This document shows positions 20,201-36,194 of a stretch of 52,709 nucleotides of DNA, piece after piece. Source of the stretch: an uncultured Bacteroidales bacterium (GTDB taxonomy: Bacteria > Bacteroidota > Bacteroidia > Bacteroidales > F082); the NCBI GenBank assembly GCA_947164955.1, contig CAMUYT010000002.1, positions 1 to 52,709 of the forward strand, in the 5' to 3' direction. The position numbers and the translations under genes were made by a program. The notes under the pieces were generated by a model. That model was not told where the DNA came from. It saw only the letters and a list, made by a program, of their open reading frames with translations, and ran no database searches. The first letter of the stretch is position 1, and the number at the start of each line of letters is the position of its first letter.

Positions 20201-20477
20201 TAACTTTGTGGCCCGCCTCGCGTACACCGAAGGCATCGACGAGCTAAACAGCACGACCTTACTCTACCCCAACCCTGTCAACGACAAACTGACCATCGAG
20301 GCCCAAGAGGCCGTCGAAAAGGTGGAGATCTACAATGTGATGGGAGCTTTGGTTTACAGCCAGAAGAGCTGTGGCGAGATGGTGGAAATCACCACTGCCG
20401 ACCTTCCCGCTGGCACCTACGTTGTCCGCATGACGACGAAGAATGCCACGGAAACCAGAAGGTTTGTAAAGGAATGA
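17280..20477 (+). CDS. gingipain-like C25 cysteine protease with InlB-type repeats and T9SS sorting domain
   Basis: 1065 residues. Signal peptide (cleavage after AMAQ), a propeptide-like region to about 215, then a C25 peptidase domain. The dyad is H446 in NYTAHGDNN and C479 in MGNCCLSGNFGYSS. Their spacing of 33 residues equals that of His211/Cys244 in gingipain RgpB. Residues about 689-982 are four tandem modules of about 75 residues (NITVSANPTNGG, GQSCTVTATA, GFTFANWTENG, LVANF), like divergent InlB B-repeats. The protein ends in a type A sorting domain (LLYPNPVNDKLTI, VEIYNVMGALVY, AGTYVVRM, final RRFVKE). Predicted surface or secreted endopeptidase. No arginine or lysine specificity can be read from the sequence. 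Confidence 0.9.
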   Translation: MKRLSLLMVLALGTVFAMAQNGRIDLRRESKAEITKSDFSSLRATFSYGSIESQQVATERGTFSEIAIEGTYASGEIGTPELPASHQLLAVPFGATPRVTILNYSTTDYRLSDYGIGTLLPHQPSVRKDQNPDEVEFVYNASAYQTRSLATEPTASIEVQGTLRGIRVGSLVINPVSYNPATNTLRVFNDIEVEVSFDGADRAETERMLLSTYSPYFDIVYKQMFNYRQIMDVYDDHPDLMAYPTHMIVITPESYVSALQPWVNWKIQKGIDVNVVTTAQAGGNYNAIRSYVQNLYNTGVSQGATPTFLVLVGDVAQVPNTTGSSTQKVTDLYYGSVDNDYFPDMFYSRMSAENTTQLTAIVNKILQYEQYTMPDPSYLNNVTLIAGWDSYWTSRVGAPTINYATTYYYNTAHGFTQVNSHVNQSQYNGCYNALSTGVGFVNYTAHGDNNMWYQPQLTNSGVNALTNTDKYFLAMGNCCLSGNFGYSSACFGEAMIRAENKAAYSYIGSCPNTYWYEDYYFGVGATNVFSQTPTLENTATGVYDGIWMDDTYNTVSSIVFLGNLAVCYASTGGYQTSSNPTYYWQAYHVLGDGSIMPYHVNPTANTVSHASSIPAGSGNFMVNAQAGSYVAISQNNVLKGVALVPANGSSVNVAYSGITSGSQVRIVVTKPQRQPYIQDINVGGGTQTYNITVSANPTNGGTVTGGGSYNQGQSCTVTATANSGFTFANWTENGSVVSTQASYTFSVTGNRTLVANFTAQPVNYNIAVSANPTNGGQVSGGGSYQQGQSCTVNATANSGFTFANWTENGSVVSSQASYTFSVTGNRTLVANFQALPQTYTISVSANPTNGGTATGGGTYQQGQSCTVHATPAAGHTFEGWTENGNTVSTNTNYTFTVTGNRALVANFALQTVEITASVEPAEGGTATGGGVYNYGDEVTITVVTNEDWAFQHWTENGIILMEEQSFTFVATVSHNFVARLAYTEGIDELNSTTLLYPNPVNDKLTIEAQEAVEKVEIYNVMGALVYSQKSCGEMVEITTADLPAGTYVVRMTTKNATETRRFVKE
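19344..20226 (+). repeat. four tandem ~220-base coding repeats in the C25 gene
   Basis: Units begin near 19344, 19569, 19794 and 20013. The first two are nearly identical at the DNA level over long stretches; the fourth is the most divergent. They encode the ~75-residue InlB-like beta modules. Such identity suggests recent duplication and possible length variation by recombination. Confidence 0.85.
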
Positions 20478-20506
20478 AATACGTTTGTGTTTTTATGGTT
20501 TTGTGT

Positions 20507-20534
20507 GTAGAGACGGTGCATGCACCGTCTCTAC
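20507..20534. repeat. 28-base perfect palindrome, probable bidirectional terminator
   Basis: Arms GTAGAGACG and CGTCTCTAC enclose the self-complementary core GTGCATGCAC. It lies 29 bases after the C25 stop and its last base is the first base of the TAG stop of the converging YiiX-like gene. An element with the same arms and another core occurs at 51789-51816. Confidence 0.8.
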
Positions 20535-21205
20535 TAGTATACGGGGACCAGCAAAGACGAATGGTATAAATCGTTCGGATTGGTGCCCAAAACGCCCTGC
20601 GGAATCTCCATACCCTGACGCTCGAACAATTCCACCCAATAGGCATCGAACTCGCCGTCGGCATTGCGAAAATTCATCGGGGCAGCTTCGAAAATCGGTT
20701 TTCCGTTGCGCTGATAGCATTCGTAAACCAATTCGCTGCAATAGTATTTGCCGTTATCAGGCAGGAAAGTGAAATCATACTCAGCGCCAACCAGCATTTT
20801 GGCCTTGGCCACAAAATCCATGGCGCCACGTTGGTCTTTCAACTGCATGATCTTGATGTTGGGCATACGGCCTTCTTCGTCCCGTTGGGCTTCAAGAAAC
20901 TCGTTGAGCTCCCGGCGACTTACGCCCGTCTTGGGTGCCGCATCGATGACGAAAAGGCTGTCGTTGCACCCCTCGATGATGCCCACATGCACCATCGCGC
21001 CCGTGCTGCCCATGATGGCTTGGTCCATGCTGGGCCGGCATTCAGCCCGAATGCCAAGCGTATCTTGGCAGCATTCGGGCCGAATGCTGGTCGAGATGCC
21101 TTCAACAAAAATCAAGTCGCCGGAAAACACCGGCTCGTTGTGGGTGCACGAAACCATTAAGGCCGCAAACAAGCCAATAAAAAGAAACCTTTCAATTTGT
21201 TTCAC
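20534..21205 (-). CDS. YiiX/YebB-like NlpC/P60-type lipoprotein hydrolase
   Basis: 223 residues, lipoprotein (lipobox LMVSC). A permuted papain-fold cysteine hydrolase is recognised by GDLIFVEG near the start, the histidine in MVHVGIIEG and the cysteine in YYCSELVYECYQ. Such proteins cleave amide bonds in the cell wall or lipids; the substrate is unknown. It starts with GTG, which overlaps the TGA of the DUF362 gene by 4 bases (GTGA), so it is translationally coupled. Between STS and MDQAI the protein carries 19 residues (with IRPEC and IRAEC) encoded by a palindromic insertion (21029-21090) that keeps the frame. Last gene of a three-lipoprotein operon. Confidence 0.85.
   Translation of the reverse strand: MKQIERFLFIGLFAALMVSCTHNEPVFSGDLIFVEGISTSIRPECCQDTLGIRAECRPSMDQAIMGSTGAMVHVGIIEGCNDSLFVIDAAPKTGVSRRELNEFLEAQRDEEGRMPNIKIMQLKDQRGAMDFVAKAKMLVGAEYDFTFLPDNGKYYCSELVYECYQRNGKPIFEAAPMNFRNADGEFDAYWVELFERQGMEIPQGVLGTNPNDLYHSSLLVPVY
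21029..21090. repeat. in-frame palindromic insertion inside the YiiX-like gene
   Basis: Two palindromic half-elements (GGCATTCAGCCCGAATGCC, and GCATTCGGGCCGAATGC) lie head to head around a short CGTAT-centred loop, with AAGCG/CTTGG joining arms. GCTGG occurs at both ends (21029-21033 and 21086-21090), exactly 57 bases apart. This fits an insertion of 52 bases plus a 5-base target duplication, in total 19 codons. Confidence 0.65.
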
Positions 21206-22239
21206 TTGGCTTCGTCAATGTTGACAAGGTCATAGTCGCGCACGCCGAGACCGATCTTGGCGGCATGTTCGAGGATGTGGATGCCGTGTTGGCGATTGAC
21301 GCGGTTGATCAAGGCCGTGGCATCGTCGCCTTCAGCGTTGGGATAGTTGAACACGAGGTCGATACAGGCTTGGTCCAAGGCCACAGGGTCGGTGGAGGCC
21401 AAAATGCCCACGTCCTTCATCTCGGGGTCGGCAGGATGGGCGTCGCAGTCGCAGTCGACGCTGAGGTTGTTCATCACGTCGATGTAGATGATTTCCTTGC
21501 CTTCTTGCTTGAAGTAGTTGTGGACACCTTGCGCGGCAGCGGCCATCGACTCGAGGAAGCCGTCTTGGTTCTCGATGTGGTTCCAGCAATCGGCAGGGTC
21601 GGTGGTGTAGCCACACGAGTGGATGTAGGCCTTGCCAGCGGTTGAAGCCACGCCGATGCTCTGGTTCTTCAGCACGCCGCCGAAGCCGCCCATGGCATGC
21701 CCCTTGAAATGGGCCAAGTTAAGCATGAAATCGTAGTTGGCCAAGTGTTCGCCCACGATGTCGTACTTGATGTAAGTGGTGTCTTCCACAGGGATTTGCA
21801 TCTCGCCGAACTCGTCCATGATGTCGACCTTGGCGATGTCCAAGAAGCCGTGCTCCTTGATGGTCTCCCAGTGTTTCTTCACGTCTTGGCGCGAGCCGCC
21901 GTAGGCGGTGTTGCACTCGACGATGGTGCCGTTCACCGTGTTCACCAGGTCCTTGATGAGCTCAGGCTTCAGGTAGTTGTGTCCGCCCGATTCGCCTGTG
22001 CTGATTTTCACGGCCACGCGTTGTCCTTCGGCAGGTTTCACGCCGAGGGCTTCGTAAATCTTCACCAAGCCTTCGGGGCTGATGTCCTTGGTCATGTAGA
22101 CCACAGGTTTGGTAGTTTGTTCTTGTTCCATAGGTTCGTTGATAGGTTCGTTGTTTGTGTTTTCTTGTTTTTCGGTGTTGTTGCCGCAGCTGCAAAGGCC
22201 GAAGGCCAAGGCGGCGATGAGGATGTGGTGCATTTTCAT
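21202..22239 (-). CDS. DUF362 domain lipoprotein
   Basis: 345 residues from the ATG at 22239, chosen because it gives a lipoprotein signal (MHHILIAALAFGLCSCG). The DUF362 core follows: RVAVKISTGESGGHNYLKPE, IVECNTAYGGSR, LAHFKGHAMGGFGG, VGILASTDPVALDQACIDLV. DUF362 proteins are poorly characterised; many carry added ferredoxin domains, which this one lacks, although it has a CDCD motif and several other cysteines. It follows the nitroreductase by 16 bases and overlaps the YiiX-like gene by 4. Lipobox plus neighbour suggest a role in the cell envelope, possibly redox-linked (inference). Confidence 0.85.
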   Translation of the reverse strand: MKMHHILIAALAFGLCSCGNNTEKQENTNNEPINEPMEQEQTTKPVVYMTKDISPEGLVKIYEALGVKPAEGQRVAVKISTGESGGHNYLKPELIKDLVNTVNGTIVECNTAYGGSRQDVKKHWETIKEHGFLDIAKVDIMDEFGEMQIPVEDTTYIKYDIVGEHLANYDFMLNLAHFKGHAMGGFGGVLKNQSIGVASTAGKAYIHSCGYTTDPADCWNHIENQDGFLESMAAAAQGVHNYFKQEGKEIIYIDVMNNLSVDCDCDAHPADPEMKDVGILASTDPVALDQACIDLVFNYPNAEGDDATALINRVNRQHGIHILEHAAKIGLGVRDYDLVNIDEAK

Positions 22240-22255
22240 GACATTCGATTTATGG

Positions 22256-22924
22256 TTATTCAATCCAGTACACATAGTTCTCTTTGCGTGGACGGGCTTC
22301 GGGGTAGTCGCCTTTCACGTAGCCGAGGATGCAGTTGCCGATGCCGACGTATTTGTTGGCGTCGATGCCGAGGTCGGTTAGGATGGCCTTGCCTTCTTCG
22401 GTCTCGAAGACTTCCTTGGCGCGGTGGATCCAGCACGAGCCAAGGCCTTTGGCATGGGCGGCGTTGAGCAGGTTGCCCATGACGAGCGAGCCGTCTTCTT
22501 TCCAGGTGAAGGCGGCAGTGGTGTCGGCCAGGACGACCAACACGACGGGGGCGCCATAGAACGGGTCGGAGTCGTTGTCGGGACCGAACACGGCGGCGTT
22601 GAGTTTGCTCAAACGGTCGCGCACCTCACGGTTGGTGACGGCGACGATGATGGGGGCCTGGCGGTTCATGCCCGTGGGGGCGTAGGTGCCGGCCTTGCAG
22701 ATTTCTTCGATGACCTCGCGCGGAGGGATCGAATCGGTGTAGCTGCGCACGCTGCGGCGCGTCAGCAGGTCTTGCATGGTAGTACTCATGATGGTTTCGT
22801 TTTTGTTGTCTTCAGTGGCATTGGCTTCCGTGCCTGCGGCTGCGGTTCCTGAGCCCGTCGAAGGACCGCATGCGCTGAAAGCCGCTACCACAGCCAAAGT
22901 GAGGATGAAAAGTAGTTTCTTCAT
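22256..22924 (-). CDS. nitroreductase-family flavoprotein with lipoprotein signal
   Basis: 222 residues. The N-terminus is a lipoprotein signal (MKKLLFILTLAVVAAFSACG) and a linker rich in Gly, Ala and Thr. The nitroreductase domain starts near residue 46 (MSTTMQDLLTRRSVRSYTDS) and contains AGTYAPTGMNRQAPIIVAV, MGNLLNAAHAKGLGSCWIHR and GIGNCILGY, typical of FMN-binding NAD(P)H-dependent reductases. Most family members are cytoplasmic. Here a flavoenzyme is predicted to be exported by Sec and lipid-anchored, which is unusual. Alternatively translation could start at the internal ATG (near 22789). Part of the linker (GPSTGSG) is encoded by an interspersed repeat. First gene of the three-gene operon. 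Confidence 0.87.
   Translation of the reverse strand: MKKLLFILTLAVVAAFSACGPSTGSGTAAAGTEANATEDNKNETIMSTTMQDLLTRRSVRSYTDSIPPREVIEEICKAGTYAPTGMNRQAPIIVAVTNREVRDRLSKLNAAVFGPDNDSDPFYGAPVVLVVLADTTAAFTWKEDGSLVMGNLLNAAHAKGLGSCWIHRAKEVFETEEGKAILTDLGIDANKYVGIGNCILGYVKGDYPEARPRKENYVYWIE
22844..22867. repeat. interspersed repeat copy within the nitroreductase linker
   Basis: GGTTCCTGAGCCCGTCGA followed by AGGACC. On the minus strand it reads GGTCCTTCGACGGGCTCAGG-AACC, the same family as the repeats at 39771-39833 and 42270-42316. It encodes the GPSTGSGT segment just after the lipidated cysteine. Confidence 0.6.
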
Positions 22925-36085: not shown

Positions 36086-36194
36086 TGTAGGGCTGTCACA
36101 TTGTGGCAGCCGCAATCATTGAAGCGGCTGCCGTGATACGACAGCCCTACAAACGTGAAAATGATTGGGGCGGCCGTGATACGACAGCCCTACA
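36086..36194. repeat. TGTAGGGCTGTC inverted/direct repeat cluster
   Basis: Inverted pair TGTAGGGCTGTC...GGCAGCCGC (36086-36113) and GCGGCTGCC...GACAGCCCTACA (36124-36151). A direct copy of the second arm is at 36170-36194, sharing GGCCGTGATACGACAGCC apart from one base. It lies 10 bases after the nucleotidase stop; the hairpin could protect or end that mRNA. Confidence 0.7.

What the first reader, a model, noticed from the sequence alone, without database searches (positions are those of the whole stretch)
21029..21090. Palindromic element inserted in frame in a lipoprotein hydrolase gene
A double palindrome lies between GCTGG copies exactly 57 bases apart. It adds 19 codons (with IRPEC and IRAEC) between STS and MDQAI, a place where related proteins, as I remember them, have no such segment. 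Length in multiples of three, open frame and a possible 5-base target duplication resemble protein-coding palindromic elements (RPE) of Rickettsia.
Basis: partly seen in the sequence, partly recalled or inferred. Interest (0 to 1): 0.7.

Follow-up and report, generated by a model that had tools for sequence, protein, structure and literature searches.

The report
REP-like palindrome pair inside lipoprotein gene
A short self-complementary DNA repeat, normally found between genes in a few related bacteria, sits as a pair inside a gene without breaking its reading frame and adds about 18 amino acids to the encoded protein; similar cases are known from Rickettsia and some other bacteria, so this is a new example rather than a new phenomenon.

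Summary
The gene at 20534-21205(-), a Peptidase_C92 lipoprotein, carries a double palindrome that all 8 homologues found lack. The net gain is 18 codons rather than 19.

The unit is a 17-bp palindrome, GCATTCGGNCCGAATGC. At <=1 mismatch it occurs 25 times at 16 loci in 8 of 99 genus genomes, with 0 reversed controls. Among 393 genomes sampled across the order, exact copies occur only in this one. By my reading of the ORF tables it lies between genes at 15 of 16 loci. At 9 of 16 it is the tip of a larger GTAG-ended hairpin (several are orthologous). One such hairpin, at a fixed locus, has the core in six genomes and a core-less tip in two.

Best reading: a REP-like palindromic repeat that inserted once, as a dimer, in frame. 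It resembles Rickettsia palindromic elements at this site but is not one, because coding insertion is the exception (1 of 16). In-gene REP dimers are already described (PMC3733652). How it moves is unproven; the 5-base target duplication is not established.

The parts
20534..21205 (-). Host gene: Peptidase_C92 (YaeF/YiiX-type) lipoprotein, GTG start, 223 aa, lipobox LMVSC
   Evidence: PF05708 E 1.9e-18; lipobox read by eye; the upstream DUF362 ORF ends at 21202 and overlaps the start by 4 bases
21032..21085 (-). Net inserted segment relative to homologues: 54 bp, 18 codons IRPECCQDTLGIRAECRP (residues 41-58); 21029-21085 (57 bp) if the codon for S59 is counted
   Evidence: gap of 18 columns in 7 of 8 homologues and 19 in one
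21038..21054 (.). Palindromic core copy 1, GCATTCAGCCCGAATGC (1 mismatch to the family)
21071..21087 (.). Palindromic core copy 2, GCATTCGGGCCGAATGC (exact)
21052..21070 (.). Spacer palindrome, on the gene strand TGCCAAG-ATACG-CTTGGCA (7-bp stem, 5-nt loop), tip of the long hairpin formed by the two cores
21030..21095 (.). Long inverted repeat: arms 21030-21054 and 21071-21095, 84% complementary
21027..21033 (+). Direct repeat ATGCTGG, first copy (candidate target duplication or microhomology)
21084..21090 (+). Direct repeat ATGCTGG, second copy (its first four bases belong to core copy 2)

Best explanation
The segment is a dimer of a lineage-restricted, REP-like short palindromic repeat (17-bp unit GCATTCGGNCCGAATGC). 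Its normal home is intergenic: the tip of a larger GTAG-ended hairpin repeat, single units just after stop codons, or small arrays. One dimer was copied into the N-terminal part of a C92 lipoprotein gene. It has survived because its length is a multiple of three, the family core has no stop in any of six frames, and it falls between the GDLIF motif and the conserved MDQAI...HVGI block. SHOWN: family, absence from homologues, mainly intergenic habit, presence/absence of the core at one fixed hairpin. INFERRED: that it moved as a single-stranded hairpin, either by a Y1 (RAYT-like) transposase acting in trans or by replication template switching at the GCAT microhomology, and that the protein still works.
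For: Homologues lack it, 8 of 8, the nearest 77% identical. The family is real: 5 cores at <=1 mismatch in the own genome and 25 in 8 of 99 genus genomes, controls 0; no exact copy in the other 392 of 393 genomes sampled across the order. Intergenic habit. Both arms of the GTAG-ended hairpin flank the core at 9 of 16 loci. At one fixed locus the hairpin carries the core in G000, G066, G077, G111, G115 and G142 and a core-less tip in G112 and G126. Core dimers with 17-23 nt spacers also occur in two intergenic arrays of G117 (window spacer 16). The family core is open in six frames, though the window element itself has a stop in one of its six. Y1 transposase domains occur in 10 of 10 genomes tested.
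Against: No mover is tied to the repeat: none of the 10 Y1 loci held (of 51 listed matches) carries a core or hairpin arm within the flanks held, up to 1.5 kb. The core lacks the GTAG or CGTC end tag of the known REP superfamilies. Outside the window, dimers with such spacing were found in only one genome of the genus, and the reversed control of that loose pattern also rang in one genome (G063, 2 matches). Two- and three-mismatch copies are near chance (about 0.75 and 10.6 expected), so the family is small. Mechanical ORFs cover some intergenic cores. No data show the gene is expressed. The structure model failed (pLDDT 38).
Confidence: 0.75

Rival explanations
1. Template-switch insertion without any transposase: during replication the strand at CCAGCAT paired with a core elsewhere (shared GCAT), copied its palindrome(s) and returned. 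The repeat spreads passively by hairpin-driven strand switching or gene conversion. (Overlaps with the best explanation, which leaves the route open.)
For: The ATGCTGG direct repeat at both edges overlaps the core end, as microhomology would; cores sit at hairpin tips; a small array in G117 C15 ends beside a hairpin arm (by eye); no constant flank beyond a weak GGNTT...AANCC tendency.
Against: Near-identical 17-mers at unrelated sites imply a shared source that is repeatedly chosen; no second dimer was found in the own genome. Target duplications at other copies were not tested.
Confidence: 0.4
2. True RPE-like selfish element adapted to coding genes.
For: In frame, multiple of three, family core open in six frames.
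Against: 1 of 16 loci coding by my reading. One further in-frame candidate in the own genome is a two-mismatch hit near chance level (L007).
Confidence: 0.07
3. Ancestral loop of the protein that relatives lost; the palindromes are incidental.
For: None beyond the open frame.
Against: 8 of 8 homologues found, including the 36%-identical one in G054, lack it; the DNA matches a dispersed repeat.
Confidence: 0.02
4. Assembly artefact of a draft genome joining a repeat into a gene.
For: Draft genome, 229 contigs, 72.8% complete; no reads could be examined.
Against: Frame kept on both sides, flanks collinear with the G051 homologue; the two cores differ from each other; no second copy of the dimer in the genome that could have been misjoined.
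Confidence: 0.06
5. The added loop (three cysteines) was selected for a new property of the enzyme.
For: The insert lies near the N terminus, between two conserved blocks.
Against: Seen in a single genome; no polymorphism or expression data.
Confidence: 0.07

Closest known systems
REP elements inside genes (GTAG/CGTC REPs, Di Nocera et al. 2013, PMC3733652)
   Same: Short dispersed palindromes, mostly between genes and near gene 3' ends, often dimers able to form one large hairpin, occasionally inside genes (dimers or groups encoding 20-30 residues); patchy among species.
   Different: No GTAG or CGTC end tag on the unit; 17 bp with a one-base centre; few copies; found here at the tips of another repeat's hairpin.
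Rickettsia palindromic elements (RPE)
   Same: Palindromic repeat inserted in frame in a gene, absent from relatives.
   Different: 54-57 bp rather than the usual 100-150 (some in-gene RPE-4 are shorter); coding insertion is rare (1 of 16 loci); unrelated lineage; one coding copy, so no conserved peptide can be claimed.
MITEs
   Same: Inverted-repeat arms, hairpin, intergenic preference, no gene of its own.
   Different: No established terminal repeat plus target duplication; no parent insertion sequence identified (not searched for beyond Y1 domains).
Tandem palindromic arrays in Spirochaetaceae MAGs (L070, L071)
   Same: Similar palindromic unit (GCATTCAGCCTGAATGC and variants).
   Different: Head-to-tail arrays of about 23 bp, another phylum; I take it for convergence, untested.

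Membership tests
Rickettsia palindromic elements | Dispersed palindromic repeat | tested here: met
Rickettsia palindromic elements | Inserted in an ORF without destroying the frame | tested here: met
   (one case)
Rickettsia palindromic elements | A large share of copies inside unrelated genes (nearly half in R. conorii per PMC10969869, passage) | tested here: not met
   1 of 16 loci by my reading
Rickettsia palindromic elements | Length 100-150 bp (PMC3767692, passage); weak criterion, since its Table 1 lists an in-gene RPE-4 of 84 bp | tested here: not met
   54-57 bp
Rickettsia palindromic elements | Conserved encoded peptide across insertions | not testable with these tools
   only one convincing coding copy found
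GTAG REPs | Unpaired GTAG at one end of the unit | tested here: not met
   no GTAG within 12 bases of the window cores; by eye it occurs near 1 of the 18 cores listed (G117 C15), not as a constant end. The larger host hairpin does begin TGTAGGG
GTAG REPs | Association with RAYT transposase genes | tested here: inconclusive
   Y1 domain in 10 of 10 genomes but no core or arm in the 10 loci held of 51 matches
CGTC REPs | CGTC end, 8-9 bp stem, 4-5 nt loop, mostly CCA tail | tested here: not met
   8-bp stem but one-base centre, and no CGTC at the stem ends of the window cores
REP-like repeats in general | Short palindrome, dispersed, mostly intergenic, singles, dimers and clusters | tested here: met
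MITE | Terminal inverted repeats plus target-site duplication | tested here: inconclusive
   arms 84% complementary; the 7-bp direct repeat overlaps the core and homologue lengths favour a 54-bp gain

The most novel reading that the evidence does not exclude
The 17-bp palindrome is a minimal mobile unit that preferentially enters the loops of existing DNA hairpins (a hairpin-tip parasite of another repeat) and only by accident enters genes. It would be an unusually small dispersed palindromic unit with exact ends, moving by single-strand hairpin chemistry.
Probability: 0.12. Interest if true: 0.6.

Novelty: new member of a known kind. Interest (0 to 1): 0.42.

Why it matters
It adds a case of in-frame palindromic insertion, best known from Rickettsia, in another lineage (Bacteroidota-like by my recall; no call names the organism). 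The comparisons are clean: insert-free orthologues, the nearest 77% identical to the window protein, and a fixed hairpin locus with and without the core. That makes the movement of such repeats testable in sister species.

Tried and rejected
Uptake-signal idea: GCATTCGG is not enriched in the window (51 matches at <=1 mismatch, 61.75 expected). Rejected for the window; not tested genome-wide.

Virus or plasmid origin: 13 viral contigs hold the exact 17-mer. Their flanks do not resemble the window element; some resemble each other (L083 and L084 look like one sequence on opposite strands, L072 and L074 are alike). I take them for chance, but no expectation was computed. Plasmid and phage searches with the 79-bp element gave only weak partial hits: 15 plasmid records (best listed E 0.2) and 2 phage records (E 8).

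Known RNA family: none at gathering score for 20400-22400.

Structure of the insert: the single-sequence model is useless (pLDDT 38). The PDB search matched only YiiX 2if6 (E 0.00053), and that alignment starts after the insert.

Copies at 2 mismatches (2 further places) and 3 mismatches (11 further places; reversed control 6 in all at <=3): at or near chance, not used in the counts. The first pairwise alignment used the wrong strand and was redone. A first extraction of the flavodoxin locus found no gene in 23 of 30 loci and was redone for 22 of the 30 (the 8 others, more distant, were left out).

Full report
CHECK. The segment is as described. Two 17-bp palindromes at 21038-21054 and 21071-21087 lie in the minus-strand gene 20534-21205. 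The gene encodes a Peptidase_C92 (YaeF/YiiX) lipoprotein (lipobox by eye). On the gene strand the two cores pair with each other, with the spacer TGCCAAG-ATACG-CTTGGCA as tip, into one long hairpin (-24 kcal/mol as DNA, -40.8 as RNA; z -4.7 and -4.9; 0 of 200 shuffles each).

IS IT AN INSERTION? A family-level scan matched 3 of 60 genomes (own included) and a genus-level scan 8 of 99 (own included), at E <= 0.001. That gave 8 distinct homologues: G051, G080, G133, G125, G114, G060 and G088 in the genus, and G054 in the family. All 8 were aligned and none has the segment. The flanking DNA of the nearest, G051 (77% protein identity), is collinear up to both edges. The gap is 18 residues in 7 and 19 in one. 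The five closest relatives have five residues between the glycine and the methionine of MDQ/MDH (for example ASAGA) where the window minus 57 bp would have four, so 54 bp is the more economical net gain.

DIRECT REPEATS. ATGCTGG occurs at 21027 and 21084. The second copy overlaps the core's end (GAATGC), so it may be microhomology. With the homologue lengths, a 5-base target duplication is not established. Duplications at other copies were not tested.

FAMILY. GCATTCGGNCCGAATGC in the own genome: 2 exact, 5 at <=1 mismatch, 7 at <=2, 18 at <=3, with reversed controls 0 at <=2 and 6 at <=3. Base composition of the window predicts 0.0007, 0.03, 0.75 and 10.6, so only the <=1 class is secure. In the genus: 25 cores at 16 loci in 8 of 99 genomes, all controls 0. 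Across the order: exact copies in 1 of 393 genomes, the own one. That sample held only 5 genomes of this genus, and the seven other exact-copy carriers were not among them, so it speaks for the 388 genomes outside the genus. Flanks of 18 of the 25 cores (chosen to leave out most orthologous and array copies) show only a weak GGNTT...AANCC tendency. The family core is open in all six frames; the window element as a whole has a stop in one of six, not the gene's.

HABITAT. By neighbouring ORFs, 15 of 16 loci lie between genes. Mechanical ORFs do cover cores there: 477 codons at G066 C60 (antisense to a 489-codon ORF that ends 9 bases before the core), 253 at G110 C45, 242 and 208 in the two G117 arrays, 144 at G066 C58, where a right-hand ORF's mechanical start also lies in the core. 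I judged these spurious from the neighbours, not from a test. At 9 of 16 loci both arms of a larger repeat, TGTAGGGCTGTC...GACAGCCCTACA, enclose the core; a tenth, G110 C45, has degenerate arms by eye. Several of these are orthologous copies of one locus, so they are not independent. The larger repeat occurs in 7 of 7 genomes tested (own 18, G066 15, G110 10, G117 14, G051 4, G080 1, G142 7; 69 matches, two of them nested; reversed controls 0). By eye 7 of the 69 carry a core (one with two mismatches) and the rest have other short tips, so the core is a separate piece.

FIXED LOCUS. Downstream of a flavodoxin-like gene I compared 22 of 30 loci held. The hairpin test rang in 11 of 22: with the core in G000, G066 (two mismatches), G077, G111, G115 and G142; with a core-less tip in G112 and G126; shortened in G110 and G140; divergent in G079. 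The other 11 showed no such hairpin within about 210 bases.

DIMERS. In G117 cores form two intergenic arrays with 17-23 nt between close neighbours; the window spacer is 16 nt. A loose dimer pattern matched 2 of 99 genus genomes (own 1 place, G117 5 places), and its reversed control rang in one genome (G063, 2). A stricter dimer pattern over genome-contig hit 2 stretches, both Spirochaetaceae MAGs with tandem arrays; that tool may leave out near relatives of the window.

MECHANISM. Shown: dispersed family, presence/absence at two kinds of site, in-frame survival. Inferred: movement as a hairpin. Y1 transposase domains occur in 10 of 10 genomes (51 listed matches), but the 10 loci held contain neither core nor arms, so a link is unproven. 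Template switching at GCAT microhomology is the main rival route. Effect on the protein: the insert lies between the GDLIF and MDQAI...HVGI blocks; the conserved H and C are kept (their catalytic role is recalled). It adds three cysteines. The structure prediction failed.

LITERATURE. PMC3733652 (abstract, sections 5, 6, 13, 14, 15, the first part of 17, and passages read) describes GTAG and CGTC REPs, their dimers, their position near gene 3' ends, and intragenic cases, more than half of them dimers or groups encoding 20-30 residues. It states that CGTC repeats occur in Bacteroidetes and Spirochaetes and that CGTC-4 and CGTC-1 elements of R. conorii are RPE-4 and RPE-6. PMC10969869 and PMC3767692 (passages only) give RPE habits. 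A literal search for four short strings (both core forms and two hairpin ends) found 0 papers in the held library.

VERDICT. A real, small, lineage-restricted REP-like family with one convincing in-frame coding insertion. It behaves like an RPE at this one site but fails RPE membership by habit (and, more weakly, length), and carries neither REP superfamily tag. A new member of a known kind.

Noticed in passing
window 20507-20534: Perfect 28-bp palindrome GTAGAGACGGTGCATGCACCGTCTCTAC sharing one base with the C92 stop codon; near-identical copies occur at many places in the genus genomes searched (capped list).
   Followed up: partly
window 36087-36150 (and a lone right arm at 36183): A full copy of the larger GTAG-ended hairpin repeat TGTAGGGCTGTC...GACAGCCCTACA with a core-less tip.
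   Followed up: partly
G066:C123:18089-18994 (L121) against window 20534-21205: The close relative G066 (99% identical flavodoxin-like protein) has a permease-like ORF (named by eye) where this genome has the C92 gene; G051 has both, suggesting alternative losses.
   Followed up: partly
L105, L106 against L103: The flavodoxin-locus hairpin appears, by eye, in opposite orientation in different genomes, as if it flips in place.
   Followed up: no
L070:2900-3139, L071:277-730: Spirochaetaceae MAGs carry head-to-tail arrays (about 23 bp) of a very similar palindrome plus AAACCC/GGGTTT.
   Followed up: no
L007:1501-1517: A two-mismatch core lies in frame in a 612-codon ORF with a Big_5 domain; could be a degraded second coding copy or chance.
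   Followed up: partly
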